From assembly GCA_944321435.1 (NCBI GenBank), contig CALULH010000012.1, positions 1 through 64,000 of the forward strand: a stretch of 64,000 nucleotides of DNA, in the 5' to 3' direction. A program made the translations under genes and the position numbers. A model generated the notes under the pieces. The model did no database searches. It saw only the letters and a list, made by a program, of their open reading frames with translations, and was not told the DNA's origin. Of the stretch, positions 2-17,971 are shown piece after piece; the stretch's first letter is position 1, and the number at the start of each line of letters is the position of its first letter. Source of the stretch: an uncultured Coriobacteriaceae bacterium. Lineage in GTDB: Bacteria > Actinomycetota > Coriobacteriia > Coriobacteriales > Coriobacteriaceae.

Positions 2-194
2 GAGGGGCTCCGCGAGAGCAGGCGCGGCGTGGACGAGACCGAGGAGTCCACGGCCACCAAGCTCGACGCGATACGGGGGTGCCTGCGCCGGGGCCTGTCG
101 CCGGCGCAGATAGCGGCCACGCGGCCGGACCTCGGACTCTCCGCGAGCACGGTGTACCGCCGGGTCGACGCCGGCTACGCGGAGATGACCAACA
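2..194 (+). pseudogene. IS30-family transposase fragment, 3' part lost
   Basis: An open frame enters from the left edge of the window and is cut at 194 by the IS3-type element. The readable part ends in a helix-turn-helix region (SPAQIAATRP, then SASTVYRRVDAGY and MTNM) that matches the N-terminal DNA-binding segment of IS30-family transposases, where the next residues are normally a basic stretch (RRK-type). The catalytic DDE domain is absent, so it cannot be functional. The 5' end lies outside the window. The family assignment rests on motif resemblance only. Confidence 0.6.
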
Positions 195-225
195 TGAATT
201 TGAATCTGCCCCATTCCCGTTGACA
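195..225 (+). repeat. IS3 left terminal inverted repeat
   Basis: Positions 195-225 pair with the reverse complement of 1478-1508 at most positions. The outer 18 bases differ at only two places. Confidence 0.8.
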
Positions 226-275
226 CACGGACTTCCGTTTCGGCATGATGCCGTAAACGGGGAAAGGGGGCGGGG

Positions 276-563
276 ATGGGGAAACCGTCACCGAAGTACA
301 CCGCGGAGTTCAAGCAGCAGGCGGTGAGGCTGTGCAGGGAGAGGGGCGGCACCTACGCCGAAACCGCCCGCGAGCTTGGGGTCGACCCGGGGAGCCTGTC
401 GGACTGGGCCAGGAGGGCCGACGCCGCGCAGGCGCCGGCAGGGGACAACCCGTTCCAGATGGCGGAGGACCTCAGGCGCCTCAGGCGCGAGAACGAGCGG
501 CTCAAGAGGGAGAACGAGATACTTTTAAAAGCGAGCGCCTTCTTCGCCAGCAGGCGGCTGTAG
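276..563 (+). CDS. IS3 orfA, helix-turn-helix transposase subunit
   Basis: A 95-aa protein with the IS3 OrfA layout: an N-terminal HTH (YTAEFKQQAVRLCRERGG, then ETARELGV and LSDWARR), followed by a leucine-zipper-like helix (RRLRRENERLKRENEILLKA) used for multimerisation. It binds the element ends and is made alone or as the N-terminal half of an OrfAB fusion. The frame overlaps orfB, and a T TTA AAA heptamer at 524-530 sits in the right register for -1 frameshifting. Length and domain order are normal for the family. The protein looks intact, though its orfB partner does not. Confidence 0.85.
   Translation: MGKPSPKYTAEFKQQAVRLCRERGGTYAETARELGVDPGSLSDWARRADAAQAPAGDNPFQMAEDLRRLRRENERLKRENEILLKASAFFASRRL
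524..530 (+). promoter_or_regulatory. Programmed -1 ribosomal frameshift site of the IS3 element
   Basis: The heptamer T TTA AAA is aligned with the orfA codons TTA (525-527) and AAA (528-530). Slipping back one base lets translation continue as FKSERLLRQQ..., the known start pattern of an OrfB. It fits the X XXY YYZ rule. Confidence 0.7.
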
Positions 564-1474
564 GCTCGCGGGCGGAGGGGGCGAGGTTCGCTTCCATCCT
601 GCTCAACGAGGGCGCCTGGAGCATATCCGAGATGTGCGCGGCCCTCCATGCCACCAGGCGGGGCTGCCACGCGTGGAGGAAGAGGCCGCCGGGCGCGCAC
701 GACCTGCGCGACGCCGAGCCCGCGGCGAAGATCTCCGAGATATACGGGGCGAGCCGGGGAAACCACGGGGCGCCGAAGGTCTTCGCCGAGCTCAAGAGGG
801 CCGGCGAGCGGACCTCGCGCAAGCGCGCGGCGCGCATCATGCGCGAGGAGGGCCTGTCCGGCATCACGTGCGGCTGCGCCAGGAGGCCGAAGGGCGCGGC
901 CAAACCGGCCGCGCCGCAGGCGAACGCGGCTCCCGACCTGGTCAAGCGAGACTTCTCGGCGGACGGGCCGAACCGCGCATGACTCGCGGACATCACCTAC
1001 GCGCGCACGCACCGGGGATGGCTCCACCTCGCCGTGGTCATGGACATATGGTCGAGGATGATAGTCGGTTGGTCGATGTCCCCGCACATGACGGCCGACC
1101 TTGCCGACGACGCGCTCAAGATGGCGATGGCGAGGCGGCGCCCGAAGAGGGGGTGCGTCCACCACAGCGACCACGGCTCCCAGTACGTGTCGCCGCTGCT
1201 GGGCAAGACGATGCGCGAAGCCGGCATCGGGCCCTCGATGGGGTCGGCCTCGTCCCCGTGGGGCAACGCCGCGACGGAGTCGCTGATGGGCCTCATCAAG
1301 TCCGAGCGCGCGCACGCCCGCACGTTCGAGACGCGCGAGCAGGCGGCGCTGGAGATCTTCGAGTACATCGAGCGCTCCTACAACCGGGTGCGGATCCACT
1401 CGGCGCTGGGGCACCTCAGCCCCGAGGAGTTCGAGGCGAGGCATATGGAGGGCGCCGCCAAAACGGCGGCGTAA
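530..1474 (+). pseudogene. IS3 orfB DDE transposase with in-frame stop
   Basis: Reading on from the frameshift site gives a typical OrfB: an HTH_21-like region (YGASRGNHGAPKVFAELKR), then the rve/DDE integrase domain with ADITYARTHRGW (first Asp), HHSDHGSQY (second Asp), ATES (Glu), and the C-terminal RIHSALGHLSPEEFE box. The codon at 980-982, just before the first catalytic Asp, is TGA where family members have TGG (Trp). The frame is otherwise open from 530 to 1474. A single base change therefore splits the enzyme, separating the HTH part from the whole catalytic core. Unless the stop is suppressed, the element is dead in cis. Confidence 0.8.
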
Positions 1475-1477
1475 GGA

Positions 1478-1508
1478 TGTAAACGGAATCGGGGCAAATT
1501 CAGATTCA
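1478..1508 (-). repeat. IS3 right terminal inverted repeat
   Basis: Partner of the repeat at 195-225. It lies four bases beyond the orfB stop codon. Confidence 0.8.
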
Positions 1509-1986
1509 TCGCGCCGGTGAGGCGGTCCGTCAGCCAAGCCGTGTCCCCGGCCCAGTCGATGTAGGCTTTCGCACCCGGCTCGTGGGCGAGCCTCCTGGTC
1601 GCCCCGGCCCTCTCGGCGGCGTCGGCGAACATCTCGCAGAAGGCCTGGTAGGAGTACGCGCGCTTCCCGGCGGCCTCCGCCGCCACGCAGTGCTCCATCC
1701 AGAACATCTTCACCGTGAGCTTGCGGCTCCTCTTCTTCCGTGCGATCAGCGGCCCCATGTCGGGAGCCAGGTAGGCGCTCTCGCGCGGACCCCGGGGCGG
1801 CGCGAGCATCCCGTCCACCTCGGCGGCGCCCATCGCGGCGACGTCGTCGAACGTCAGGCCGTGCTCGCGGATCGCCTTGGCGCACGCCGAGACGTCGCGC
1901 TTGCTCGCGTGCAGGGCGGCGGCGACCCCGGCCTGGGAGATCCCTCCCTTCGCCAGCATCAGGAGGATCTTCTTTCTCTTGGACAT
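1509..1986 (-). pseudogene. istA: IS21-family transposase IstA, truncated by IS3
   Basis: On the minus strand, ATG at 1984-1986 (ribosome site AAAGGGG about 9 nt upstream) opens a frame with the IS21 IstA N-terminus. It has the HTH (MLAKGGISQAGVAAALHASKR) and later the start of the DDE core (AKAYIDWAGDTAWLTDRLTG). It is cut at 1509 by the IS3 right end after about 159 residues, removing the rest of the catalytic domain and the istB helper gene. It is non-functional. Its 5' side still has the IS21 end repeats at 2068-2126. Confidence 0.8.
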
Positions 1987-2067
1987 GGGCACCAGCCCCT
2001 TTCCGTTTCGCGGCGCCCGCCCTTCGGGCGCCCTCCCCACGGATTCTAGGAGCGGTACTATGCGAGC

Positions 2068-2126
2068 CGATTCCCGGTACCACCGGCGCTGACCGCTGGT
2101 ACCAAAAATCGCTGACCCGCGTTACC
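2068..2126 (-). repeat. IS21-type multiple end repeats
   Basis: Two 17-bp direct copies of CGCTGACCG-type sequence stand at 2087-2103 (ending GGTACC) and 2110-2126 (ending GTTACC). A weaker copy (CGATTCCCGGTACC) is at 2068-2081. Tandem subterminal repeats of this type are a hallmark of IS21 ends, where IstA binds. They mark the right limit of the insertion-sequence cluster. Confidence 0.6.
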
Positions 2127-2326
2127 AGATTGGGTTACTACTCACTTTGCGCATAAAACCGTTGCACCAAGTGTAAAAACGCCCAACCAGCCAAAAGTGT
2201 TGCGATAAGGTTGGAAATCAACCTGTCGGCTTTTTGTTGGTACGGTGATTTCAAAATACAGTGTTGTTGGCATTGGCAAGCTTAAGTGAGTGCAATATAC
2301 CAATTGTAATTGTGAGCAATTCGGAG

Positions 2327-3640
2327 CTAGGTAGTTTGAGCATTGCCTGTATCTGCTGGCGAAATCACGTCAATCATATTTTCGAGACGCTGCAGCAAGT
2401 CGGTGTAGGTAATGATATCGGTGATGTGTGCGTATTGACGGCGTATCAGGTCGAAGTCACGCTGCTCGGTTTCATTGAACTTGCAGTTTCCGATGAGGAG
2501 GAGTCCGTGGGGAGTGAGAAATCTTATTTTGAGTCCTTTGGGGAGAAGGGACGAGTATCGCTCGGTAAGTTTCTTCTCCCCATCCACACTCCAGTTGAGA
2601 AGCAAATGAATGTACTTTTCAATTTGAGAGATGCCACCGCTTAGCTCCCGCGCTGGTATGCAATTGTCGCGATATGTCCTGAGCATAAGCAAATGGTTCT
2701 TCGGAAATGCTCTCTTTATTTCTAGTACGTCTACATTACCAGATGCATCCACCAGTAAGAAGTCAATCTGCCTGCTTTTGCCCGTAAGCCGGTCTTCAAT
2801 CGCTACTTTTGGAATCACGGCTACATATTGGGGAAAAAGAACAGGCAAAATGTCCAGCACTCCCTGTTGCCAAGATTCCTCTGGCGTTGTATCGCTCTTG
2901 TTCAGCAAATCTTTAAGCTGCTGCTGAGCAGCGTTAAGATTCTCGACGCGGTTTCTGTCGAAAGCCGGGTTACCTAATCTGTATTGCAGCGTCTGTTGCT
3001 TTCTTGCCAGATTGCAATGGAGCTGTGCACCGTAGTCCTTCCTTGGAAGTAGGTATTCCTGTATGTAGCGTTCTATCAGGGCTTCTCCATATTGTTCGAG
3101 ACTTAACGTTGTTGGGAACCTATCAACGAGATCCTTAAACACATCTATGGGAATGGCTTTTTCGTTATCTCCGCCTATGATAATTTGATGTTCAGACTCG
3201 TCCAAAATCGAGGATATTTTCTTTATCACAGAGGTACGACGCTCGTAACCAACACAGAACAGCCTCCAATCAAGATCAAAGTCTTTTACAAGGAGAAGGT
3301 CTTGGGTACAGCTGAATATGCGGCCTTTGACCTTAAAGTATCCAGGGATTCTATCGTCTAAGTACGCAAACCTGAAAACCAGGGTATCTCCGTCACATTC
3401 CTTATCGACTAGGTCGCTTTGAAGAAAAGTGAACACTTTCTTTATCCAAAGGCTTGCATCTGGATATGTCGCCGGCCGTGTTTCCCTGAGTCGTTTGGGA
3501 AGTGTTTCAGGTGAATATCGGATGAGATTGTTTTCACTGTCAAAGTCAATGCATAGTTTGGACAGGATGGTGTCATCAAGTGAATATGGTTGGTAAATCA
3601 ACCATATTTCTCTTTCGTTCTTAATAAGCTTGAGCGACAT
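2327..3640 (-). CDS. sduA: Shedu-type anti-phage nuclease SduA (DUF4263)
   Basis: A 437-aa protein. The C-terminal half is a PD-(D/E)XK nuclease of the Shedu/DUF4263 type: Glu254/255 near ESWQQG, core QIDFLLVD with Asp293, then VLEIKRA with Glu307 and Lys309, and GGISQIEKY with Gln339 further on. Residues 1 to about 230 form a variable sensor region, as is usual in Shedu proteins, where the N-terminus differs between lineages. In characterised Shedu systems a single SduA protects against phage by cutting DNA, acting in the cytoplasm. Here it is the last of three minus-strand genes in an AT-richer block beside insertion sequences, the usual setting of a defence island. Nuclease family assignment is firm. 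The activating signal is unknown. Confidence 0.85.
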   Translation of the reverse strand: MSLKLIKNEREIWLIYQPYSLDDTILSKLCIDFDSENNLIRYSPETLPKRLRETRPATYPDASLWIKKVFTFLQSDLVDKECDGDTLVFRFAYLDDRIPGYFKVKGRIFSCTQDLLLVKDFDLDWRLFCVGYERRTSVIKKISSILDESEHQIIIGGDNEKAIPIDVFKDLVDRFPTTLSLEQYGEALIERYIQEYLLPRKDYGAQLHCNLARKQQTLQYRLGNPAFDRNRVENLNAAQQQLKDLLNKSDTTPEESWQQGVLDILPVLFPQYVAVIPKVAIEDRLTGKSRQIDFLLVDASGNVDVLEIKRAFPKNHLLMLRTYRDNCIPARELSGGISQIEKYIHLLLNWSVDGEKKLTERYSSLLPKGLKIRFLTPHGLLLIGNCKFNETEQRDFDLIRRQYAHITDIITYTDLLQRLENMIDVISPADTGNAQTT

Positions 3641-3769
3641 CGAATCATCCTCTACTTACCGGTGTCAGCGCTAAACGGAATCGGCAACGGGCACGATAAC
3701 CTTCAGTAAATGCTGGAAATCAGGGAGTCATTTTTTAATCATGTGATTTTCGAAGATTGGCGTTTTTCC

Positions 3770-4954
3770 TCATAAGCTCATTAGCTGGTTGTTTTGCCGG
3801 TAGGATCGTTGAAAAGAATCTTCTAAGTTGTGGCATAGAAGCGTATTGAGCATTTCAGAGTGAGATGTGCCGTGTATGTCAGGACTCCTTCTCAATTCTT
3901 CAACAGTTTGATACCGGTGAAAGTATTCCAGGAGCCCGAGTAGGGCTACAAGATTGTCCGAGTACGTGCTTGCATACGCTTTGTACCAGCAAGCGTCATT
4001 TTCAACAAGTATTCGGTAAAGCTTATGGTAGAGTTGCAACCGATTGTTATCGATGCGGAACCATTGATCCGGTAGTAGTCGTTTCTCGATTCTGCTTTTG
4101 TTGTCTGTATACTGCGTGGCGGATGAAAAGGCTTTCATTAATTTAGCAATAAGCCCCGCAATCATGTCTGCAGCACGTAATCCGAAGTGGTTTATGGAAT
4201 CGCCCTCATCTACCGGAGAAAGCCCCACACTTCTCGCTGCGTCTGCTGTGCTGGTTTCTTTGTCTATGAGAAGTGAGTACTCGTTGATATTGTGCTGGTT
4301 AAGGTAAAGAGTAAACCCATCAAAAGGGGGCCTGTAGTTCCAGTCAAGCTTTGTTGGCAGATCTACTCTATCGAGCATGAATAGAATTACGCGAAAAGCT
4401 TCTATCTCTCGATGTTTGAGCGGGTAATTTGCCTTATCCTGATTTACCTGATTTTGAAAAAAGTGACGGAGCGCCGTTAACAATTCAATTGGTGTGCCGT
4501 ATAACGCTGTGATTACTTCGGTTGGCCTGTATAGAACAATGGCTTTCGTGATGGAATAAACTATGTCATTGAACATTGGGCCCATGCTTACGGAGTGGCT
4601 GACAAGTACTTGGCGAATAATAAATTCCAATTTGCTTGCATGCGAATAGTAAAGAAGAGTCCGCTCATCAAAGATACTTAGAAGATCCCCAACAAGGGCA
4701 ACAGTATTTTTAGAGGAAGAGGCGAAGCCATTTTTTAGCTGACTGTTGTTGATCGAGGTGCTTTTTAATTCGAGCGCTTTCGGTGACTTATATCTGCTTT
4801 CAAAATCGAGATACTCGTTTTCTAGCTGCTCTTCATCGCTGTCTTTCCAACCGACCGTGGTGGCAATAAATCCATCAAAGAAATTCTCTGCTTTAACGGT
4901 ATTTTTTGTAATAGAGCGACTGTGCTCCGATTCGTCGTAGTAAAAAACATACAT
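3770..4954 (-). CDS. DUF3800-like protein, RNase H-fold candidate
   Basis: A 394-aa protein, taken from ATG at 4952-4954 because AGGAAAGGAG stands 7 nt upstream; a longer frame would put that ribosome site inside the gene. The N-terminus MYVFYYDESEHS (Asp7, Glu8, Ser9), a LELKST segment near residue 61, and GLRAADMIAGLI near residue 258 (Asp263) match the three acidic blocks of DUF3800. That family is predicted to have an RNase H-like fold and is often found in mobile and defence regions. Its substrate is not known. It lies 129 nt upstream of sduA on the same strand and shares its low GC content, so the two probably moved together. Function is inferred from fold and context only. Confidence 0.65.
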   Translation of the reverse strand: MYVFYYDESEHSRSITKNTVKAENFFDGFIATTVGWKDSDEEQLENEYLDFESRYKSPKALELKSTSINNSQLKNGFASSSKNTVALVGDLLSIFDERTLLYYSHASKLEFIIRQVLVSHSVSMGPMFNDIVYSITKAIVLYRPTEVITALYGTPIELLTALRHFFQNQVNQDKANYPLKHREIEAFRVILFMLDRVDLPTKLDWNYRPPFDGFTLYLNQHNINEYSLLIDKETSTADAARSVGLSPVDEGDSINHFGLRAADMIAGLIAKLMKAFSSATQYTDNKSRIEKRLLPDQWFRIDNNRLQLYHKLYRILVENDACWYKAYASTYSDNLVALLGLLEYFHRYQTVEELRRSPDIHGTSHSEMLNTLLCHNLEDSFQRSYRQNNQLMSL

Positions 4955-5083
4955 TGTTAAAACTCCTTTCCTCACCACCTGATAGGGTCTGCATGGGTTT
5001 TATGGAGTTGCTTGTCTAATTAATTTGTTTAGGCAGTGGGCATAGGAGCTTCAAACACGTCTCGTCAACATTAATATATTGTC

Positions 5084-5917
5084 CTATGCCCCTTGCGTGG
5101 CAAAGTACACCGCAAGCGCTGCGGCGAAGGCTGCAACGGTGATGATCCACGGCATGGCTTTGGCATTCTCGTCTTTTGGCTTGAGCGCCTGTCCAATGGC
5201 AGCAGCTAAAAACGCAAAGCTGCCGATGGTAGTGAGATTTGCAACAATAACGATGCTGCCGGTTACTTTTGACATGAACGCCATCAGGTTGACGTTTACC
5301 AAGCTGAAGATAGCGGCAAAAATGGCCATAATCGCCAACATGTTGGCGTAGACGTTCTTTTCGAGTGAGAGCAGAAGAACGTCCGACTTGTCAGAAAACT
5401 TCTTAAGCTCCTTGTTGTAGGAACTTTCATAGTCGCCCATGCCCTTGAAGTTGAACTCTTGGGCAAAGGTACCGTGATAGGGATTCTCAACAGGGGAGAC
5501 CTGTTGGAAAGCGATCTGGGCTATAGGCTTTTGGGTGTCGAGCACAATCTCATTGCTGCTTACGTTGGTGATGCGGAAGAACACACGCGTTTCGTGTCCA
5601 GGGAAGTAAAGCGGCGCGTCCAAGCTTAAACCTTGGCGCATGCGCGAGTTTTTGAGCAGTACGGTGGCGGCGAGATTGTTGGGAAGCTTGACGATCTCTT
5701 CAGTGTCTACAAAAACCGAGGCATTGGGCTCAAGCGTATAGGAGTCAGTCTCGCTGTAACGCTCAATAAAGAAGTGGCGCGTGGTAAGATCGTAAGTAAC
5801 GGGGCCGTCAACGCGCGCATACAGCTTCTTCGGCGCTACCGCAGTTCCGTTTTCATCCTCGACGCGAATAATTCCGGTATCGATCAGCTCTTTGATGGCT
5901 ACGTCGCCCAACAGCAT
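5084..5917 (-). CDS. Membrane-anchored dCTP deaminase/dUTPase-fold protein, catalytic Glu missing
   Basis: A 277-aa protein; ATG at 5915-5917 has GGAGGAGG just upstream. Residues 35-140 have the beta-rich dCTP deaminase/dUTPase pattern (NLAATVLLKNSRMRQGLSLD, PGHETRVFFRITN, KPIAQIAFQQV). The position that is the catalytic Glu in dCTP deaminases (VLEFYN in E. coli Dcd) is Arg115 here (FFRITN), so deamination is unlikely. Three membrane segments follow at about 190-215, 219-244 and 255-273, which no ordinary Dcd has. It is upstream of and co-oriented with the DUF3800 gene and sduA, separated by 129 nt. A nucleotide-sensing, membrane-located role is possible but not shown. Confidence 0.6.
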   Translation of the reverse strand: MLLGDVAIKELIDTGIIRVEDENGTAVAPKKLYARVDGPVTYDLTTRHFFIERYSETDSYTLEPNASVFVDTEEIVKLPNNLAATVLLKNSRMRQGLSLDAPLYFPGHETRVFFRITNVSSNEIVLDTQKPIAQIAFQQVSPVENPYHGTFAQEFNFKGMGDYESSYNKELKKFSDKSDVLLLSLEKNVYANMLAIMAIFAAIFSLVNVNLMAFMSKVTGSIVIVANLTTIGSFAFLAAAIGQALKPKDENAKAMPWIITVAAFAAALAVYFATQGA

Positions 5918-6132
5918 GGAGCTTCCTCCTCCGATTGCCTATTGCGGCAGTATAGCACTCCGGGCCTTGAGCGCGCGTTGTTGGTTGGCTTCTGTTAGCG
6001 CTCAGGGCGTGTGGCGATGGTTGAGCTCTTGCGTTCAGCTGCGCAAAGATTGCGCCAGCATTAAGCTGCGGCTTAAAGCCTACATGGTGCATACTAGAAT
6101 CCATCCTGATGACGGCGCAACGGGAGGCTCCC

Positions 6133-7971
6133 ATGGATGCGAACCATCAGCTTGACCCCAACTGGCGTACCGGCTTTCCGTCGACGGCGCTTACGCGTGG
6201 CGCGGGGTATGCGCGCAACGGGTTGGTTGGTGTCGTGCGATCTGTTGGTGCGGGCTGGGAAGCGACGGTCGATGGGTCGGAGCCGTATTACGTGTTCGTG
6301 CCCGATGTCTCGCACGGTTCCGTTGCGGACGGTGCGCGTTGCACGTGCCCGTGGTTTGCGAAGGGTCATCTCTGCAAGCATATCGCCGCGGTGTGTATAG
6401 CGCTTGAGCAGGAGCGAGTGGCACTCGATGCGGCGGAGGATGGCACGCCCAACAACGGTGCAAGCACGGCAAACGTGGGAAGCAACCACACCCCAACCAT
6501 TCCCGAGCTTCTCGCACGGGCAAGCGATGAGGAGGTTCGTTCTTTTCTCGCCGATCTTCTCGCTCACGACGACCGGCTGGCGTACCGCTTCAGGATGCGC
6601 GTGGGCGCTCCTGACGCCAATGCCGCCAAGAGGGCCTTGTCCCACGAGCTGTCGCAGATCGTCCGGGTGCATGCTCATCGAGGGTTCATAGACTACCGCG
6701 CAGCATACGATTTTGAGCGGGATTACCTTGACGCGGTTGAGGACGCGCTGGCGCCTTTTGAGCTTCGCGCGGATGCGGAAGCGCTCTTTTCTCTGACGGA
6801 TACCGTGCTCACCAGCTTGCGGCGCGTGCGCATCGATGATTCGGACGGCTTCTTTATGACGGCGCTGTCGGTGTTGCGCACGTACTGGGACGCGGCGTTC
6901 GACGCACTGCCCAATGCCAAAGCGATGACAGCGTATGTGAAAAAGCTGCTCGCGCAGGCGGAGGGCATCCAGGCCGCCGAGCAGGAGGCTGATATCGACT
7001 GGTTCTTGGTTGACCAGATCGAGGAGTACGTGGTGGAGCGTTTTGCCGACAGTCCGGATCAGGCAGGCCTGGTGCTCGGCTTGGCTGATGCGCGCATTGC
7101 CGCGTGCCGGCGCGCGTTTGAGCGCAGGCAGAAAGAGGAGCGCGACCGTGCGGCACGGGCAGCGCAAGCGGGGCGAGCGTGGGGCGCCGTGCCGATGTAC
7201 GACATCCATACGCCGCGGTGGGTTGCCGTGCGCCTGCGAGCCATGCGGGCGTCAGGCGCTTCGACCGACGAGGTGCTGGCGTATGCGGATCCGTATCTGC
7301 AGAGCCAAACGGTCGCAGAGGCGGCCGCCGACCTACTGGACGAGGCGGGGGAGACTGAGCGAGCCGTGCGCCTGTACGAGCGTTTGCTTACGCGCGAAGG
7401 GGTTGAGAAGCACGTGCGCCGCTTCCTCTTGCAGCGCCTGAAGGACTGGTACGCGGTGCTGGGCGAGAACGAGAGCCTCGTCGCGGCGTTGCGCACGCTG
7501 CTGGTTGAGGCCGACGGTTACGAAGGCAGCGGCGTGGTGGCGGCGCTTTGGAACGAGCTCAAGGCAACGGTTGTCTCGGCGGACTGGCCTCAAGTGAGCA
7601 ACAACGTGCTGGCTCACATGCAGTCGGCGGCGGCACGTTGTGATTGCCTGGCGGCAGAGGGAAGAATTGATGAACTTGCTGCCGCGTTGGAGGGCGGGGA
7701 TTGCGGTTATCGCACGCCGGCCTCATATGAGGATCAGCTGCTTGGCGAGCATGCGGACGTGCTGGTGCGGTGGTACGCCACGTGCGCAGAGGATAACATG
7801 GCGGGGCATGTTTCCGGCCGTAAGGCGTACCGCAAGAGCATCGAGATCCTGGCGCATCTGGCTGACCTGCCCGGTGGAGCTGAGGAGGCCAATCGCATTG
7901 CGGCTTCGTGGCGCGAGAAGTACTCCCGCCGCCCGGCGCTTTTAGAAGAGCTTGCAGCAGCAGGGTTCTAG
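6133..7971 (+). CDS. SWIM zinc-finger protein
   Basis: A 612-aa protein. Near the N-terminus the SWIM motif is clear: Cys70-x-Cys72-x8-Cys81-x-His83 (CTCPWFAKGHLCKH). SWIM domains bind DNA or protein partners and occur with Swi2/Snf2 ATPases, but no helicase lies next to this gene. The remaining 500 residues are helical, repeat-like and rich in Ala, Glu and Arg, without an obvious enzyme motif. ATG at 6133 is preferred (GGGAGG 7-8 nt upstream); an ATG at 6109 would add eight residues. A TACTAGAAT-like -10 lies near 6090. A decayed relative of its first 80 residues stands at about 8745-8945, so the locus has been duplicated. Confidence 0.7.
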   Translation: MDANHQLDPNWRTGFPSTALTRGAGYARNGLVGVVRSVGAGWEATVDGSEPYYVFVPDVSHGSVADGARCTCPWFAKGHLCKHIAAVCIALEQERVALDAAEDGTPNNGASTANVGSNHTPTIPELLARASDEEVRSFLADLLAHDDRLAYRFRMRVGAPDANAAKRALSHELSQIVRVHAHRGFIDYRAAYDFERDYLDAVEDALAPFELRADAEALFSLTDTVLTSLRRVRIDDSDGFFMTALSVLRTYWDAAFDALPNAKAMTAYVKKLLAQAEGIQAAEQEADIDWFLVDQIEEYVVERFADSPDQAGLVLGLADARIAACRRAFERRQKEERDRAARAAQAGRAWGAVPMYDIHTPRWVAVRLRAMRASGASTDEVLAYADPYLQSQTVAEAAADLLDEAGETERAVRLYERLLTREGVEKHVRRFLLQRLKDWYAVLGENESLVAALRTLLVEADGYEGSGVVAALWNELKATVVSADWPQVSNNVLAHMQSAAARCDCLAAEGRIDELAAALEGGDCGYRTPASYEDQLLGEHADVLVRWYATCAEDNMAGHVSGRKAYRKSIEILAHLADLPGGAEEANRIAASWREKYSRRPALLEELAAAGF

Positions 7972-10519: not shown

Positions 10520-10871
10520 GTGGGGAGAATGAGCGCGGACGTTTCGTTCTGCTTCACCAAGCTTTGACAGAAGCTGCGCTTGATGGTTCCAGACGAGAAA
10601 AACGTGCAATGACGGGCGAGATGTACGGGCGGTGGAGCGGCAAGAACGTGCGCTGGTATCGCCGGCTGGCATCGGCACGTGAAAGGCGGCATCCAGTGTT
10701 CTATGCTTCTCGCCCCGCAAGCATCCCCGCCTCCGCTCCGTGTGCTTATCGTGTGGGTGGTTAGCGGCAGGAGGCTTGGGGCAGAATAACCATCGCTGCG
10801 ACACCGCGGGCACGCTCCGCGCGGCGCGGCCACCAAGATTAGCCGGATCCACCTAGAGGAGAGGAACCGAT

Positions 10872-11249
10872 ATGGCTCAGTTTTATAAGTGCGCCCACTG
10901 CAAGAACCTCGTCGCCACCATCACCGACGGCGGCGTGACGCCCGCCTGCTGCGGCGAGCCTATGATCAAGCTCGAGGCCAACACCACCGACGCCGCCACC
11001 GAGAAGCACGTGCCCGTGGTGGCGCTCGAGCGCGACGGCCACGTGGTGCGCGCTACGGTCGGCGAGGTCGAGCATCCCATGACCGAGGAGCACTACATCG
11101 AGTTCATCGCGCTCGAGACGGCCGACCGCCTTGAGGTCCACAAGCTCAAAGCCGGCCAGACCCCCACGACGTTCTTTGCGGGCGGGGCCGACCACGGTAC
11201 GGTGTACGCCTACTGCAACCTGCACGGTCTGTGGAAGGCGGAGTTTTAG
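10872..11249 (+). CDS. dfx: Desulfoferrodoxin / superoxide reductase
   Basis: A 125-aa protein of normal length. The N-terminal desulforedoxin-like centre has Cys7, Cys10, Cys26 and Cys27 (YKCAHC, PACCGEP). The superoxide reductase centre has Glu44-Lys45-His46, His68, His74, Cys115 and His118 (EKHVPV, EHPMTEEH, YCNLHG), the His4-Cys iron site. It reduces superoxide to hydrogen peroxide without making oxygen, a strategy of strict anaerobes. Its electron donor (rubredoxin or similar) is not in the window. The ribosome site AGGAGAGGAA lies just upstream of ATG 10872. It appears monocistronic. Confidence 0.95.
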   Translation: MAQFYKCAHCKNLVATITDGGVTPACCGEPMIKLEANTTDAATEKHVPVVALERDGHVVRATVGEVEHPMTEEHYIEFIALETADRLEVHKLKAGQTPTTFFAGGADHGTVYAYCNLHGLWKAEF

Positions 11250-11357
11250 CTCGGGCGCTCTGCGCAACTCTGTGAAAAGCGCGCCTGCCTGCGGATGACT
11301 CGGCCGCAGCGCCGGCGCGGTTTCCGAAGTCCTCGCCTGTTCCCGGCGCCGACTTCG

Positions 11358-11363
11358 TATAAT
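11358..11363 (+). promoter_or_regulatory. Candidate -10 box
   Basis: TATAAT, a perfect sigma-70 -10 hexamer in GC-rich surroundings. No convincing -35 lies 16-18 bp upstream. Confidence 0.4.
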
Positions 11364-11380
11364 AGAAGGGAACGAAGGCG

Positions 11381-11410
11381 ACCGCCCCGATGGCTACCCA
11401 TCGGGGCGGT
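11381..11410 (+). terminator. Stem-loop in the 5' leader (attenuator or stabiliser)
   Basis: ACCGCCCCGATGG (11381-11393) pairs perfectly with 11398-11410 around a CTAC loop. The tail is TGTTC rather than a true U-run, so termination would be weak. It starts 17 nt after the TATAAT box, so it would be at the very 5' end of the transcript. Confidence 0.45.
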
Positions 11411-11606
11411 TGTTCAAACGGGCGAGAAACGCAGGCAAGCGGGAGGCGCCCATCCGGTTGAGGCTGGCGGGCGAGAAACGCAGGCGGCCGCGGGCGCCGT
11501 TGCAGGCGGGTGAGAGGCGCGATGCCGGTTGCGGTGCAAATCCCGCCGGGCAACGCGTCCCGCGGACCGCATGGCCGGTCCCACGGCAAGAGGAAGGGCG
11601 GAGCAG

Positions 11607-13574
11607 ATGATCATCGCATTGGCGCAGATCGACGGTCGCTTGGGCGACATCGAGGGCATCTGCGACCGCATCGTGGAGCAGGCGCGCCTTGCCGAGGAGG
11701 CCGGCGCGCACGTCATGTGCACCCCGGCGCCCCTCTTCGCGGGCATCCTGCCCGGCTCCCTGGTGGATTCTCCCGATTACCTGGGAGACTTGCTCGCCGC
11801 GCTGCAGCGCACGGCCCAGGAGGTCGGCATAACCTGCCTGGTGCCGGCGGTCATTCCCTGCGCGGGCTCCCAGCTCTTCGAGGTCTTCATGCTCAAGGAG
11901 GGCAGGCTCATCCCCACGCGCACGCTGGTGGCCAGCCGTCGCTCGGGCGATCTCGACGAGGTGTGGGCGCCACCGGTCTTCGACGTGGACGGCGTGCGCA
12001 TGGGCCTCACCTTCGACCTGGAGCGCGATATCGACCGCGTGCCCACGGGCACGGACCTCATCGTCTATTTCCAGGTTAGCGGCTTCGACCCCACGGACAT
12101 GGCCACGGCGGCGGTGGCGGCGGTGCCCGACGGGCATTTCCGCGACCTAGCCGTGAACTCGCGCCGCTGGATTGCCTGCATGGCGCCCGTGGGGGCGTTC
12201 GACGAGGCCGCCTACACGGGCGGGTCGTTTGTCATGGACGATAACGGCCGCGTGGTTGCGGCCGCCCCGTGCTTTGAGGAGGGCTTGGTGGCGCAGGAGA
12301 TCCTGCGCGGGCAGATGCCGCCAGCCGTGCCCCAAAACGAGCTGCCGGTTTTCCACCAAGACGCCTGGCTGTGGGAGGCGCTCGTCATCTACCTGCGCGA
12401 CAACCTGGCCGCGCGCGGGTTCACCCGCGCCGCAGTGCTGCTTGCGGGCGACCTGCCGAGCTCCCTTGCCGCCGCCCTGGCGGTGGACGCGCTGGGGTCG
12501 CGCAACGTGACAGGTGTCCTCGTCGAGCGCGGGCGCATCTTCACACCGCAGCAGCAGGCGTCCGAGCAGGAGCGCCTGAGCGCGGTGCGCGCGCTTGCGG
12601 CTAACCTGCATATCGAGCTCGCGGAGCATGCCGCCCCGCGGGCCGACTGGCTTTTCCAGAGTGGCGTCCCGGCGGACGAGTCCGCGTTTATCGCCCAGGC
12701 GGAGCAGCTCATAGCGCGTACGGAGGCGCAAGCGCGCGGCGCGTGCTTGGTGAGCTCGCTTACCAAGACCGACTATGCGCTCGCGGGGGAGGTTCTCCCC
12801 ATGCCCTACCTGGGGTCCGTTGCGCCCTTTGGCGACGTCTACCTGACGCATCTGGAGTTTTTGGCGCGCTACCGCAACGGCGTGTCACCGGTGGTGCCCG
12901 CGCGGTTGGTGACGCTCAACGCGGTCGAGGCGCGCATGGCCGAGGCGCTCGCGGCGGTGCGGCGCGGCATGTCCGCCCTGCCGACCTACGCCGATCGCGT
13001 GGCCGCCTGCTTGGAGCGTCTTGAGGCCACGCAGGTGGACAGCATCTTGGACGCGCATGTCGACCGCAACCGCGGCGCTGCGGACATCGCCTCGGCGGCC
13101 CTTCCGGCCGAGGCGGTGCGCCTGTTGCTCATGCAGGTGCGACGCGGCGAGGCAACGCGGCGCATGCTCCCGCCGGCCGCCATCGTTTCGGCCCGGTCCT
13201 TTGCGGAGCGCGCTTGGCCGCAGGCGCTCGCCTGGTCCGATCTCGGCCACGAGGACGATGAGGAACGTCCCACGGTGGAAGGCCTGGTCAAGGCCGAGGT
13301 CGAGCGGTTCGAGCGCAATGCGCCCGATGCCGGCGAGCGCATTCGCGGCGAGATCATCGGGTTGCTCGGCGACATCCTGGGCCTCGATCCCGACGAGCAG
13401 GAGCAACTGCAGAGCGAGGAGGGCCGCCGGCGCCTGCAAGAGGGCTTCGAGCGCTTTGAGCAGGAGCTGCGCCGTGCCATGGGCTCCGGCGGGGGCATGC
13501 GTCCCCCCATGGGCCCCGGCCCCATGCTGCCCGGTGCGGACGGGGAAGGGTACCCGTTCTTCTCGCAGAACTAG
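11607..13574 (+). CDS. Degenerate glutamine-dependent NAD+ synthetase-like protein
   Basis: A 655-aa protein, with ATG at 11607 and GGAG 5-6 nt upstream. It has the two-domain layout of glutamine-dependent NadE: a nitrilase-like amidase (residues 1 to about 235) and an NAD synthetase domain (about 250-470). Both active sites look broken. The nitrilase Glu is replaced (TPAPLFAGILPG, residues 39-50) and the nucleophilic Cys position reads LTFDLE (Phe136). The ATP-binding SGGxDS loop reads LAGDLPSS (279-286). The tail ends in Gly/Pro/Met-rich sequence. It therefore probably does not make NAD+; a regulatory or structural role is possible. It is followed by ruvCAB, which has its own promoter. Confidence 0.65.
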   Translation: MIIALAQIDGRLGDIEGICDRIVEQARLAEEAGAHVMCTPAPLFAGILPGSLVDSPDYLGDLLAALQRTAQEVGITCLVPAVIPCAGSQLFEVFMLKEGRLIPTRTLVASRRSGDLDEVWAPPVFDVDGVRMGLTFDLERDIDRVPTGTDLIVYFQVSGFDPTDMATAAVAAVPDGHFRDLAVNSRRWIACMAPVGAFDEAAYTGGSFVMDDNGRVVAAAPCFEEGLVAQEILRGQMPPAVPQNELPVFHQDAWLWEALVIYLRDNLAARGFTRAAVLLAGDLPSSLAAALAVDALGSRNVTGVLVERGRIFTPQQQASEQERLSAVRALAANLHIELAEHAAPRADWLFQSGVPADESAFIAQAEQLIARTEAQARGACLVSSLTKTDYALAGEVLPMPYLGSVAPFGDVYLTHLEFLARYRNGVSPVVPARLVTLNAVEARMAEALAAVRRGMSALPTYADRVAACLERLEATQVDSILDAHVDRNRGAADIASAALPAEAVRLLLMQVRRGEATRRMLPPAAIVSARSFAERAWPQALAWSDLGHEDDEERPTVEGLVKAEVERFERNAPDAGERIRGEIIGLLGDILGLDPDEQEQLQSEEGRRRLQEGFERFEQELRRAMGSGGGMRPPMGPGPMLPGADGEGYPFFSQN

Positions 13575-13659
13575 CCGCCGCCTTTGGGCGATAAACGCAT
13601 GTCGACGCGTCTGCCGCAGCACGGCGGGCGCGCCGTTTTCAGCGAGAGGGCGCAAGCGC

Positions 13660-13689
13660 TTGCCATGCCGTCTCCGAACCGCTATAGTA
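13660..13689 (+). promoter_or_regulatory. ruvCAB promoter
   Basis: TTGCCA at 13660-13665, an 18-bp spacer and TATAGT at 13684-13689, 36 bp upstream of the ruvC start codon. Confidence 0.65.
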
Positions 13690-13701
13690 GAACAAACGTT
13701 C
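13690..13701 (+). promoter_or_regulatory. LexA (SOS) box of ruvCAB
   Basis: GAACAAACGTTC matches the Gram-positive/actinobacterial LexA pattern GAAC-N4-GTTC exactly. It starts directly after the -10 box, so bound LexA would block the transcription start. This predicts DNA-damage induction of ruvCAB. Confidence 0.8.
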
Positions 13702-13725
13702 GTAGATGAGGGCGAGGAGGGCCGC

Positions 13726-14250
13726 GTGATCATCTTGGGGATCGACCCAGGGCTTGCCAACACCGGCTGGGGCATTGCGGAGACCCGTGGCGGGGACATG
13801 CGCGCTCGTGCTTACGGCTGCATTCACACGCCCGCCGGGGGAGAGATGGCCCCGCGCCTGCGGCGCATCGCCGACGAGCTCACGGCCGTGGTCAGGCGTT
13901 ACCATCCCGATGCCGCGGCAGTCGAGGGGATTTACTTTGGCGCCAACGTGCGCTCGGCCATCCCGACGGCGCACGCGCGCGGCGCGGCGTTGGTGGCCCT
14001 GTCGCTTGCTGGCGTGGAGATAGGCGAGTACACGCCCATGCAGATCAAGCAGGCGGTGGTGGGTACGGGTGCTGCCGATAAGCGCCAGGTCGCCTACATG
14101 GTGCGCACGCTGCTGCACTTGGACCACGACCCGCGGCCGGATCATGCGGCCGACGCCCTTGCCTGCGCCGTCTGCCATGCGCACCTGTATCAGACCAAAC
14201 GGCTTTCGTACGGCGCGAACGCCCAGACCAAGGAGGGCCTGCACGCATGA
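13726..14250 (+). CDS. ruvC: Holliday junction endonuclease RuvC
   Basis: A 174-aa protein starting at GTG 13726 (AGGAGG 7 nt upstream). It is the RNase H-fold resolvase that cuts Holliday junctions symmetrically at RuvAB-processed recombination intermediates. Catalytic acidic residues are visible: Asp7 (ILGIDPGL), Glu67 (AAVEGIYFG), and His140/Asp143 (DHAADALA); His in place of the third Asp occurs in other RuvC proteins. The stop overlaps the ruvA start by four bases (ATGA), so the two are translationally coupled. The gene is first in an SOS-regulated operon. A longer upstream open frame is a shadow of the preceding gene. Confidence 0.95.
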   Translation: MIILGIDPGLANTGWGIAETRGGDMRARAYGCIHTPAGGEMAPRLRRIADELTAVVRRYHPDAAAVEGIYFGANVRSAIPTAHARGAALVALSLAGVEIGEYTPMQIKQAVVGTGAADKRQVAYMVRTLLHLDHDPRPDHAADALACAVCHAHLYQTKRLSYGANAQTKEGLHA

Positions 14251-14870
14251 TCGTTCAGCTACGCGGTACCGTGGTGGAGTCCACGCTTAACTCTGTGGTG
14301 ATCGACGTGTCGGGGGTCGGCTTCGAGCTCGGCATATCGGGGAGCACGGCTGCGGCGCTGCCCCCCGTGGGGGCCGAGGCGCTGCTTTTCGTGCGCATGG
14401 TGGTGCGCGAGGACGCCATGACGCTCTACGGCTTCTCCTCTCGCGAGGAGCGCGCGCTCTTTGACCACCTGGTGTCGGTGACGGGGGTGGGCCCGCGCGT
14501 GGCGCTCTCGGTGCTGTCGACGTTTTCCGTTGCGGATCTCTACACCGTGGTGATGACCGAGGACGCCAAGCGCATGTCAACGGTTCCCGGCGTGGGCAAG
14601 AAGACCGCGCAACGCCTCATCTTGGAGCTCAAGGGCACCTTTGCCAAGGACAAGAGCCTCGGGACCCTCGCGACGGCCCTGCCCGAGCAGCTGCCGCTGA
14701 CGAGCTCTTCCGCGCATCCCACGGCGCGGGCCGACGCCCAGGCGGCCCTGCTCTCCATGGGCTTCACGCCGCAAGAGGCGGAACTTGCGCTGGCGGGGTA
14801 TGATGATGACCAGACCAGTACCGAGGACATGCTGACCGGCGCGCTCAAGCGCTTGGGGATGGGTGCGTAA
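14247..14870 (+). CDS. ruvA: Holliday junction branch migration subunit RuvA
   Basis: A 207-aa protein. Domain I is an OB-fold (MIVQLRGTVVESTLNSVVID). Domain II has two helix-hairpin-helix motifs (VTGVGPRVALSVLS and VPGVGKKTAQRLILELKG). Domain III is a small UBA-like helical domain at the C-terminus (ADAQAALLSMGFTPQEAELAL) that contacts RuvB. It forms a tetramer that holds the four-way junction flat. It overlaps ruvC by 4 bp and is 3 bp from ruvB. Confidence 0.97.
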   Translation: MIVQLRGTVVESTLNSVVIDVSGVGFELGISGSTAAALPPVGAEALLFVRMVVREDAMTLYGFSSREERALFDHLVSVTGVGPRVALSVLSTFSVADLYTVVMTEDAKRMSTVPGVGKKTAQRLILELKGTFAKDKSLGTLATALPEQLPLTSSSAHPTARADAQAALLSMGFTPQEAELALAGYDDDQTSTEDMLTGALKRLGMGA

Positions 14871-14873
14871 CAC

Positions 14874-15923
14874 ATGTGGGAGTTGGACGAGTCGCAGGAT
14901 CCGTGGGCGGAGCGCGCCGCGGGCCGCGATCGCATGATGACGGCCGATCTCACGGCCGATGACATAGACGTTGAGCATACGCTGCGCCCCCAGACGCTCG
15001 CGGACTACTGCGGCCAGGACCGCATCAAGCAGAACCTGCGCGTGCTCATAGATGCGGCCAAGGCTCGTGGCGAGGCGCTCGACCACGTGATCTTCTCGGG
15101 TCCTCCGGGCTTGGGCAAGACCACGTTGGCGGCGGTAGTGGCCAACGAGCTGGGAGCCAACATCAAGACCACCTCGGGCCCCGCCATCGCCCGAACCGGC
15201 GACCTCGCCGCCATCCTCACCAACCTGCAGCCCGGCGACGTGCTCTTCATCGACGAGATCCACCGTCTCAACCACGCGGTTGAGGAGATCCTCTACCCGG
15301 CGATGGAGGACTTCTCGCTCGACATCGTCATCGGAAAGGGCCCGGCGGCGCGCTCCATCCGCTTGGACATCCCGCGCTTCACCCTCGTCGGCGCCACCAC
15401 GCGCTCGGGCATGCTCACCGGCCCTTTGCGGGACCGCTTCGGCATATCGTTCCGTCTGGACTATTACTCCATCGACGATCTGGTTCAGATCATCGAGCGC
15501 TCGGCGCGCATTCTGGGCGTCGGCATAGACCGGGAGTCCGCCGCCGAGATCGGTTCGCGCTCGCGCGGCACGCCGCGCCTCGCCAACCGCCTGCTCAAGC
15601 GCGTGCGCGACTACGCGCAGGTGAAGGGCGGCGGCGCCATTACCCTTCCCGTCACCATGGACGCGCTCACGTTCTTCGAGATCGACGAGCTGGGCCTGGA
15701 CTGGCTCGACGTGCGCATTTTGGAGACGCTTGCCAAGACGTTCCGCGGCCGCGCCGTGGGCCTCTCGACGCTTGCGAGCGCCGTGGGCGAGGATCCCGGC
15801 ACCCTGGAGGACGTCTACGAGCCGTACCTCCTGCAATGCGGCCTTATCGTCCGCACGCCCCAGGGCCGCGTGGCCACCCACGCCGCGTTCGAGCACTTGG
15901 GGATCGAACCGCCTACTACGTAA
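14874..15923 (+). CDS. ruvB: Holliday junction branch migration motor RuvB
   Basis: A 349-aa AAA+ helicase subunit. Walker A is GPPGLGKTT, Walker B is LFIDEIH, sensor 1 is GATTRSG, and the arginine region is GPLRDRFG. The C-terminal winged helix ([26 protein letters not shown]) binds DNA. As a hexamer it drives DNA through RuvA. The start is at ATG 14874, right after ruvA; a start at ATG 14934 would lose 20 residues, but the adjacent position favours the first. Third gene of the SOS operon. Confidence 0.97.
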
Positions 15924-15932
15924 ACGCGTGCT

Positions 15933-16008
15933 GGAGGGTGGCCGGGCTTATCTGCAACGCTCCCCTGCAAGCAAGAATCGCTCATGCAGATAAGTCCGGC
16001 CACCCTCC
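15933..16008 (+). repeat. Long hairpin, conserved-loop family A, copy 1
   Basis: Arms 15933-15956 and 15985-16008 form a 24-bp stem with one G-U pair. The 28-nt loop (15957-15984) begins ACGCTCCCCTGCAAGCAAG and is shared, inverted, with the hairpin at 16091-16163. It sits just after ruvB and has no U-run, so it is not a standard terminator. Confidence 0.75.
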
Positions 16009-16090
16009 TCGTTGCTGTATTGTATTCTGCTCGTGCGTAGTGCTCTCACACGCCGTATTGGTGTTGAGATCATTTTTGAAGTGCGGGGCG

Positions 16091-16163
16091 GCCGGGGGGC
16101 GGGTGTATGCGTATAAGCGATTCTTGCTTGCAGGGGAGCGTTACGCATACACCCGCCCCCGGC
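16091..16163 (-). repeat. Long hairpin, conserved-loop family A, copy 2 (inverted)
   Basis: Arms 16091-16113 and 16142-16163 pair over 22 bp with a one-base bulge. The stem sequence is unrelated to copy 1, yet the loop equals the reverse complement of the copy 1 loop at 27 of 28 positions. Confidence 0.75.
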
Positions 16164-16303
16164 TGTTGCACCCGTGAGATGCTCCTGCACGCGGCGGCAC
16201 CGGCCGTCAACGTGCGGTATCGTCACGTTGGCAAAGTAAGGCTGACGCAGATGATGGTTTTGCCGTAGGATAGAGACCTGGTCGCCGTCTGAGAGGAGTG
16301 CCT

Positions 16304-17971
16304 ATGCTGTCCGATATCGAGATCGCGCAAGCTGCTACGCCGTTGCCCATCACCGAGGTTGCCAAGCGGGCGGGCGTGGATGAGCGCTACGTCATTCCGT
16401 ACGGCTTCGACAAGGCCAAGATCGACTACGCCCTGCTGAACGAGCCTACCGACCACGCCGCCAAGCTGGTGTTGGTCACGGCCATCAACCCCACCCCGGC
16501 GGGCGAGGGCAAGACCACTACCACCATCGGCCTGGCCGACGCCCTGCAGCGCAAGGGCGTGCGGAGCGCCGTTGCGCTGCGCGAGCCGTCGCTCGGCCCG
16601 GTCTTCGGCGTGAAGGGCGGCGCCGCCGGCGGCGGGTACGCCCAGGTCATTCCCATGGAGGACATCAACCTGCACTTCACGGGCGACTTCCATGCCATCG
16701 GCGCCGCCAACAACCTGCTGGCCGCTATGCTCGACAACCACATCCAGCAGGGCAACGAGCTCGGCATCGATCCCAAGCGCATCACCTGGAAGCGCGCGGT
16801 CGACATGAACGACCGCCAGCTGCGCCATATCGTCGACGGTTTGGGCGGCCAGGCCCAGGGCGTCCCGCGCGAGGACGGCTTTGACATCACCGTGGCCTCC
16901 GAGATCATGGCCATCCTCTGCCTGTCCACCTCGATCCCGGATCTCAAGCAGCGCCTGGGCGATATCGTCGTGGGCTACACCTACGCCGGCGAGCCCGTGC
17001 GCGCCCGCGACCTCAAGGCCCAGGGCGCTATGACGGCCCTGCTCAAGGACGCCCTCAAGCCCAACCTGGTGCAGACGCTGGAGCACACGCCCGCCTTTGT
17101 GCACGGCGGCCCCTTCGCCAACATCGCCCATGGCTGCAACTCCGTCATGGCCACCCGCATGGCCATGCGCTTCGGCGACATCGCGATTACCGAGGCGGGC
17201 TTCGGCGCGGACCTGGGCGCGGAGAAGTTCTTCGACATTAAGTGCCGCATGGCCGGCCTCAAGCCCGACGCGGTGGTGGTTGTCGCCACGGCGCGCGCCC
17301 TCAAGTACAACGGCGGCGTGGCCAAGGCGGACCTCAACGAGGAGAACCTGGAGGCTCTCCGCGCGGGCCTTCCCAACCTGCTGCGCCATGTGGACAACGT
17401 TCAGTCGGTCTACGGCCTGCCCTGCGTGGTTGCCATCAACCGCTTCCCGTCCGATACCGAGGCGGAGCTTGCGCTCATCGAGGACGAATGCAAGAAGCTC
17501 GGCGTCAACGTGGCGCTGTCCGAGGTCTGGGCAAAGGGCGGCGAGGGCGCTCTGACGCTGGCCGACGAGGTCATGCGCCTGGTCGACGCCCCCAACGAGT
17601 TCCGCTTCTCCTACGAGGACGGCACGCCCATTGACGAGGCCATCGAGGCCGTGGCGACCAAGGTCTACCGCGCCGACGGCGTGGACTTCACGGCGGCGGC
17701 GCAAAAGCAGCTCGCCACGCTCAAGGCGAACGGCTTCGGCAACCTGCCGGTCTGCATTGCCAAGACCCAGTACTCCTTCTCCGACGATGCCTCCAAGCTG
17801 GGCGCGCCCGAGAACTTCCGCATCACGGTCCGCGAGCTCAAAGTTTCGGCCGGCGCCCGCTTCGTGGTTGCGCTCACGGGCAACGTGCTGACCATGCCCG
17901 GCCTGCCCAAGGTTCCCGCGGCCGAGAAGATCGACGTGGACGAGAACGGCAACATCACGGGGCTGTTCTAG
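16304..17971 (+). CDS. fhs: Formate-tetrahydrofolate ligase
   Basis: A 555-aa protein of normal length. ATG at 16304 has GAGGAG 5-6 nt upstream; a GTG two codons earlier overlaps that site. It joins formate, ATP and tetrahydrofolate to give 10-formyl-THF, feeding purines, fMet and, in some anaerobes, acetogenic or glycine metabolism. The P-loop [11 protein letters not shown] and the substrate region [19 protein letters not shown] are well conserved. It is followed by a terminator and then folD, the next enzyme of the one-carbon pathway. Confidence 0.97.

What the first reader, a model, noticed from the sequence alone, without database searches (positions are those of the whole stretch)
2327..5917. 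Shedu nuclease beside a DUF3800 protein and a membrane dCTP-deaminase-like protein
Three minus-strand genes, all AT-richer than the rest, sit in a row with gaps of 129 and about 129 nt and border an insertion-sequence cluster. The last is a clear Shedu SduA (Asp293, Glu307, Lys309). The first has a dCTP deaminase/dUTPase fold with three membrane helices and Arg115 where the catalytic Glu belongs. Shedu is described as a single-gene system, so a conserved trio would be new: a membrane nucleotide sensor, an RNase H-fold protein and a nuclease. The grouping is inference; the SduA call is established family knowledge.
Basis: partly seen in the sequence, partly recalled or inferred. Interest (0 to 1): 0.72.

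Follow-up and report, generated by a model that had tools for sequence, protein, structure and literature searches.

The report
Shedu nuclease in a defence hotspot
A bacterium carries a Shedu gene, predicted to make a nuclease that cuts the ends of invading phage DNA, beside two unrelated genes that do not accompany it in the other genomes searched, so the trio is likely a chance grouping of mobile, probably defensive, genes rather than a new three-part system.

Summary
In detail: three minus-strand, AT-rich genes (SduA 2327-3640, DUF3800 3770-4954, membrane Dcd-like 5084-5917), each 129 nt apart. SduA is an intact relative of EcSduA, the single-gene DNA-end-sensing nuclease. The proposed conserved trio is not supported. 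In 396 genomes of the class only the window's own genome has even two of the three genes as close relatives. None of 98 Shedu loci carries a close relative of either partner in the fetched flanks. The genes lie in a variable, IS-bordered spot; a same-genus genome has different cargo there, including a 46% identical DUF3800 without Shedu. Beyond the trio: (i) this DUF3800 subfamily has an RNase HII-like predicted fold and lies directly upstream of unrelated defence genes (hsdR, a Hachiman-type helicase, AbiH, sduA and others) in 6 of 10 loci examined; (ii) the Dcd-like protein belongs to a family with Arg at the catalytic-Glu position (97 of 99) and mostly three membrane helices; (iii) Shedu has recurrent partners elsewhere: compact gajA-gajB-sduA operons (5 of 80 loci) and BREX operons. 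Most novel reading left open: DUF3800 is a mobile accessory nuclease that pairs with unrelated defence effectors, Shedu here.

The parts
2327..3640 (-). sduA: Shedu PD-(D/E)XK nuclease, EcSduA-like, 437 aa, Asp293/Glu307/Lys309 present
3770..4954 (-). DUF3800 protein, 394 aa from the ATG (402 aa from the GTG at 4978), RNase HII-like predicted fold; lacks the roughly 110-residue C-terminal part of most homologues
5084..5917 (-). Dcd-fold protein with three C-terminal membrane helices; Arg115 at the catalytic-Glu position
3641..3769 (-). 129-nt gap DUF3800 to sduA; no terminator-like site on this strand, folds no better than shuffles (z 0.77)
4955..5083 (-). 129-nt gap Dcd-like to DUF3800; no Rfam match, weak fold (z -1.72)
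1506..2148 (-). piece of an IS21-like element (istA side, inferred: no Pfam match of its own), 97.8 percent identical to DNA of G002 that lies in a frame with an IstB_IS21 domain
194..1509 (+). second insertion sequence (IS3-type by recall; HTH_Tnp_1 transposase part at 276-563) inserted in the IS21-like element; terminal repeats 194-212 and 1491-1509, 17 of 19 matching, read by eye; its second transposase frame is split by a stop
6109..7971 (+). SWIM zinc-finger protein, divergent neighbour and right flank of the three genes; part of the variable region
10736..16951 (.). conserved backbone (desulfoferrodoxin, NAD synthase-like and on), syntenic with G002; cargo starts left of 10736

Best explanation
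The gene at 2327-3640 encodes an intact relative of the Shedu nuclease EcSduA that is predicted to act alone by binding and cutting the ends of linear invading phage DNA, and its two neighbours are likely separate cargo that collected in the same variable, insertion-sequence-bordered spot. Shown: the family, the catalytic residues, the match to EcSduA over most of its length, the absence of the trio in the genomes searched, the different cargo in a sister genome. Inferred from EcSduA: a tetramer whose N-terminal clamp senses DNA ends and whose PD-(D/E)XK domain nicks at a fixed distance from them. Inferred for the neighbours: DUF3800 would be an RNase HII-like nuclease that travels with many unrelated defence genes; the Dcd-like protein would be a membrane-anchored nucleotide-binding protein without deaminase activity.
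For: SduA profile hits. EcSduA 8ps4 aligned over profile positions 54-429 at 1.2e-120. Invariant catalytic triad in 28 of 28. Close relatives in the class, 396 genomes: SduA in 3 (E <= 1e-70), DUF3800 in 4, Dcd-like in 13 (E <= 1e-20), with only the own genome shared. None of 98 Shedu loci carries either partner subfamily in the fetched flanks. Broad PF12686 was found in 11 of the 50 Shedu genomes searched (of 80); by coordinates it is never the next gene, nearest 4.3 kb away with four ORFs between. The sister genome G002 has the same backbone up to W10736 and the same IS21-like DNA, but other cargo: Fic, DUF6119 and a 46 percent identical DUF3800 without Shedu. In G001 and G003 the desulfoferrodoxin gene lies directly next to glmM. 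GC3 is 0.49, 0.46 and 0.65 for the three genes.
Against: All three genes share strand and a low GC, there is no terminator-like site on their strand between them, and both gaps are the same length, so co-transcription is possible. The closest metagenomic relatives of SduA (74-75 percent) and DUF3800 (68 percent) could not be seen in context. DUF3800 lies directly upstream of a defence gene in other loci, so a DUF3800-SduA pairing is not excluded. The DUF3800 profile used on the 98 loci finds only the near subfamily (it missed the divergent DUF3800 of L106), and the broad family was searched in 50 of the 80 genomes only.
Confidence: 0.83

Rival explanations
1. DUF3800 and SduA work as a pair: DUF3800 is a mobile accessory RNase HII-like nuclease that docks upstream of unrelated defence effectors, here Shedu.
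Against: This subfamily is not beside Shedu in any of 98 other Shedu loci, nor is any DUF3800 next to it in the 50 genomes searched with the broad family. The window copy lacks the C-terminal part present in most homologues. The partners are unrelated to one another, which also fits plain defence-island clustering. No background rate was measured.
Confidence: 0.15
2. All three genes form a lineage-specific three-part system: a membrane nucleotide sensor, an RNase H-fold protein and a nuclease.
For: Same strand, equal 129-nt gaps, shared low GC, no terminator-like site between them.
Against: No second genome with the trio or with any two close relatives. In the Dcd-like loci fetched, the only immediate neighbours that recur do so within one genus (L052 and L054 syntenic; a DUF3825 gene downstream in L052, L053 and L054).
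Confidence: 0.03
3. The Dcd-like gene is a stand-alone membrane protein whose trimeric Dcd domain binds a nucleotide (its deaminase lost) and signals or opens a pore when the pool changes, for instance during phage infection.
For: Family-wide Arg at the catalytic-Glu column (97 of 99) with Ser, Arg, His and Asn of the same region kept; three hydrophobic segments in 75 of 82 members of at least 240 aa; relatives on 11 contigs of the viral collection; one member beside an Abi-like gene (L053).
Against: Neighbours of other members are of many kinds or unknown; trimer and ligand are inferred from the Dcd family; the model is only moderate (pLDDT 74); five of the viral relatives stop after a 166-aa frame although the match runs on, so they look interrupted; no match in the named phage and plasmid collections.
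Confidence: 0.13

Closest known systems
EcSduA (Shedu effector protein, PDB 8ps4/8ps5), DNA-end-sensing nuclease
   Same: Aligned over profile positions 54-429 at 1.2e-120, including the N-terminal region and the PD-(D/E)XK domain; single gene
   Different: The window and its nearer relatives have about 30 residues (roughly 30-60) that the more distant relatives P0264, P0268, P0274, P0281, P0301 and P0323 lack; activity untested
DUF3800 (PF12686) proteins, including the Cas12a2-linked TPR-DUF3800
   Same: PF12686 over its cut-off; RNase HII-like fold; invariant Asp/Glu residues
   Different: No CRISPR or TPR partner seen; short C-terminus; no DUF3800-type RNA motif of Rfam nearby
dCTP deaminase / bifunctional dCTP deaminase-dUTPase (e.g. 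PDB 4xjc)
   Same: Best fold match and sequence profile match
   Different: Arg instead of the catalytic Glu; below the equivalog cut-off (54.2 against 92.8 bits); three membrane helices

Membership tests
Shedu (SduA) | C-terminal SduA/DUF4263 nuclease domain over the curated cut-off | tested here: met
   80.9 bits against 27; PADLOC 1.5e-116
Shedu (SduA) | PD-(D/E)XK catalytic residues | tested here: met
   Asp293, Glu307, Lys309 invariant in 28 of 28
Shedu (SduA) | EcSduA-like N-terminal part present | tested here: met
   8ps4 aligned from profile position 54; 8ps6 N-terminal fragment 53-215 at 2.7e-36; positions before 53 not aligned
Shedu (SduA) | anti-phage protection, DNA-end cleavage | not testable with these tools
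   needs a plaque assay and a cleavage assay
Conserved Dcd-like/DUF3800/SduA trio | the three families recur together in other genomes | tested here: not met
   0 other genomes with two close relatives among 396; 0 of 98 Shedu loci
DUF3800 | PF12686 over the cut-off | tested here: met
   24.3 against 21 bits
RNase HII-like fold | fold match standing above unrelated rows | tested here: met
dCTP deaminase | catalytic Glu | tested here: not met
   Arg in 97 of 99 sequences; NCBIfam equivalog cut-off not reached. The Glu position is recalled from E. coli Dcd E138 and agrees with a Glu in the Mtb and B. halodurans alignments, read by eye
dUTPase | dUTP diphosphatase activity and motifs | tested here: inconclusive
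   PF00692 14.1 bits against 22; Dcd-fold dUTPases are the best sequence matches among solved structures

The most novel reading that the evidence does not exclude
DUF3800 of this subfamily is a mobile RNase HII-like accessory nuclease that plugs in directly upstream of unrelated defence effectors (type I restriction, Hachiman-type helicase, AbiH, Shedu), and the window shows it paired with a Shedu nuclease.
Probability: 0.17. Interest if true: 0.65.

Novelty: new member of a known kind. Interest (0 to 1): 0.3.

Why it matters
It shows that Shedu in this lineage needs no trio hypothesis, and where recurrent Shedu partnerships are: compact gajA-gajB-sduA operons and BREX operons. It also points to two families worth testing on their own: an RNase HII-like DUF3800 that recurs beside unrelated defence effectors, and a membrane-bound Dcd-fold family with a lost deaminase residue.

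Tried and rejected
Trio as a system: rejected on co-occurrence. With weak matches counted too (E <= 1e-3), two more class genomes, G082 and G115, hold a Shedu-like and a Dcd-like match, but on different contigs, and those Dcd-like frames are about 190 aa, the length of ordinary Dcd.

A structured DUF3800-linked RNA in the gaps: in window 1500-8500 the only match with E up to 10 is a weak snoRNA, taken as chance; no DUF3800 RNA family reached its gathering score in nine distinct related loci (the one match, rli28 in L197, is unrelated); folds unremarkable.

An operon partner of the Collinsella Shedu (L047 151-1437): no family, and by its composition a spurious frame. The gene next to sduA in L079, first suspected to be DUF3800 by coordinates, is GajB.

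DUF3800 in the class of a Paenibacillus genome: 2 of 259 with partial matches only (loci L182 and L183, left out of the ten counted for neighbours), so the subfamily is rare there. Named phages: no match for DUF3800 or the Dcd-like protein (SduA was not searched there); plasmids: 6 records each for DUF3800 and SduA, none for the Dcd-like; of the 6 DUF3800 plasmid records I opened 3, of the 6 SduA records none. Loci L193 and L194 were fetched and not used.

Foldseek viral library for the Dcd-like model: mostly dCTP deaminases and dUTPases, or polyproteins, of viruses. Literature: DUF3800 in 11 papers, 10 listed (passages seen in PMC10910872, PMC11701678, PMC7657543); other searches were seen as listings, with passages seen in PMC12904381, PMC11706625, PMC12839542, PMC12407980 and PMC12137116. 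Loeff 2025 and Gu 2025 on Shedu are not held, so what I say of EcSduA comes from the review PMC12904381 (passages).
Full report
What is there. The window starts at base 1 of contig C12 (72,605 bases) of a 2.3-Mb genome. Its family also holds G050, whose contig C14 has the same length (156,559) as Collinsella sp. An307 contig NZ_NFIP01000006.1, fetched separately, so I infer a relative of Collinsella (Coriobacteriaceae). Three minus-strand genes lie at 5084-5917, 3770-4954 and 2327-3640. Most homologues of the middle gene start at the position of the ATG at 4954, not at the GTG at 4978, so both gaps are 129 nt. GC is 51, 43 and 45 percent; the next gene to the right has 64 percent.

SduA. The protein passes Pfam SduA_C (80.9 bits, cut-off 27) and PADLOC SduA (1.5e-116). 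Asp293, Glu307 and Lys309 are invariant in 28 of 28 aligned sequences, as are Glu254, Trp257, Arg290 and Gln339, Glu341, Lys342, Tyr343. The closest solved structure is EcSduA, 8ps4, aligned over profile positions 54-429 at 1.2e-120. A review states that EcSduA is a homotetramer whose N-terminal clamp binds DNA ends and whose nuclease nicks at a fixed distance from them (PMC12904381, passages). I infer the same mechanism here. On a tree of 95 Shedu proteins the window falls in a 12-row clade (support 100/100) with Collinsella L066, G332 of the same order, a Limosilactobacillus and database proteins of unknown host, apart from the rows linked to BREX and Gabija.

Dcd-like protein. PF22769 matches residues 42-140 (47.9 bits, cut-off 27); the dCTP deaminase equivalog cut-off is not reached (54.2 against 92.8). 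The model (pLDDT 74) matches dCTP deaminase-dUTPase 4xjc best. At the column of the catalytic Glu 97 of 99 sequences have Arg; 75 of 82 homologues of at least 240 aa have three hydrophobic segments after residue 150. So it is a family of its own, not a single decayed enzyme. Loss of deamination is inferred; a diphosphatase activity is not excluded, since the two Dcd-fold dUTPases aligned have Met in this column (read by eye).

Test of the trio. Family level, 65 genomes: Dcd-like at E <= 1e-20 in 5, SduA in 2, DUF3800 in 4, all counting the own genome, with no other genome shared. Class level, 396 genomes: Dcd-like at E <= 1e-20 in 13 (115 at E <= 1e-3, mostly matches of the length of ordinary Dcd), SduA at E <= 1e-70 in 3 (7 at E <= 1e-3), DUF3800 in 4; again only the own genome is shared. 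At the loose threshold G082 and G115 also hold a Shedu-like and a Dcd-like match, on different contigs. From the Shedu side, 80 genome loci (the best 80 of 165) and 18 viral loci, with flanks up to 10 kb where contigs allowed, were searched with profiles of the other two proteins: 0 of 98. One of the 80, L066, is the same contig as G050. These profiles find near relatives only: the divergent DUF3800 of L106 was missed. The broad DUF3800 family was therefore sought in 50 of the 80 genomes: 11 have one; by coordinates none is the next gene, one (L106) lies 4.3 kb away with four frames between.

The place. The backbone right of 10736 is 80-89 percent identical to G002, and the IS21-like DNA at 1506-2148 is 97.8 percent identical to a copy in G002 that lies beyond its own, different cargo (Fic, DUF6119, DUF3800). 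In G001 and G003 the desulfoferrodoxin gene at this point lies directly next to glmM; in G000 and G002 glmM lies on another contig. This is a breakpoint with exchangeable cargo; the far side of the cargo in the window is cut by the contig end. The DUF3800 proteins of the two genomes are only 46 percent identical, far apart for a backbone at 80-89 percent DNA identity, so I infer separate arrivals.

What DUF3800 keeps company with. I looked at ten loci of this subfamily: L049, L050, L051, L146, L147, L148, L195 (one of four equal-scoring Lactococcus plasmid hits), L196, L197 and the window. In six the next co-directional gene downstream is a defence gene: hsdR (L147; L195), a HamB-type helicase (L196), AbiH (L197), PDC-S45 (L051, where the DUF3800 gene itself is interrupted by a stop), sduA (window). 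In the other four it is a restriction-like protein below the Pfam cut-off (L146), a glycosyl hydrolase (L148), an unknown (L050, though AbiD and PDC-S06 are close by) and the DUF3800's own tail (L049). No background rate was measured, so this is a lead, not proof.

Where Shedu does have partners. Among the 80 genome loci, five (L079, L102, L131, L138, L144; Patescibacteria and Bacteroidota) show gajA-gajB-sduA with gajB and sduA 0-14 nt apart; GajA and GajB are confirmed by PADLOC in all five. The five lie in one nine-row clade (99/98), whose other four rows were not seen to have Gabija next to them. Others lie inside BREX operons between pglX and pglZ: L087 and L113 with both confirmed by PADLOC, L078 and L174 with one of the two confirmed and the other by clustering or a methylase domain; L089 and L092 have PglZ directly downstream. 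A Shedu-BREX link is already in print (PMC12839542, passage). I did not see a Gabija-Shedu operon in the passages read after searches, most of whose papers I did not open.

Verdict. An ordinary, probably functional Shedu nuclease in a defence hotspot; the trio is most likely accidental. The DUF3800 and Dcd-like families are the more open questions.

Noticed in passing
L079:6038-11158, L102:6040-11020, L131:2278-7429, L138:5585-10630, L144:6080-11041: Compact three-gene operons gajA-gajB-sduA (Gabija plus Shedu) in 5 of 80 Shedu loci, gajB-sduA gap 0-14 nt, GajA and GajB confirmed by PADLOC in all five, all in one nine-row clade of the Shedu tree.
   Followed up: partly
L087:6457-15830, L113:6424-13749, L174:6274-13749, L078:6368-13700; also L089, L092: sduA embedded in BREX operons between pglX-like and pglZ-like genes, often overlapping by a few bases; L089 and L092 have PglZ directly downstream.
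   Followed up: partly
L195:2560-10532, L147:992-6755: DUF3800 inserted between hsdS and hsdR of type I restriction loci.
   Followed up: partly
L052:10233-11042, L053:3140-3943, L054:10582-10989, L048:4674-5483: A DUF3825 gene lies downstream of the membrane Dcd-like gene in three loci of one genus, and also near the Shedu of G332.
   Followed up: no
window 8413-8712: Small stand-alone nucleotidyltransferase (PADLOC PDC-S09 1e-13) of intermediate GC in the same variable region.
   Followed up: no
window 6109-7971: SWIM zinc-finger protein with a PADLOC PDC-S62 match over its first 250 residues (1.3e-11), found in only 2 of 31 family genomes searched, the own one included.
   Followed up: no
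L048:9035-13405: An Avs2-like gene directly beside the Shedu gene of G332, a genome of the same order (PADLOC 3e-171).
   Followed up: no
L149-L159: Relatives of the membrane Dcd-like protein on 11 contigs of the viral collection; in five (L155-L159) the frame stops after 166 aa though the match runs on.
   Followed up: partly
window 62001-64000: The last 2 kb of the window have a GC of about 52 percent, unlike the rest.
   Followed up: no
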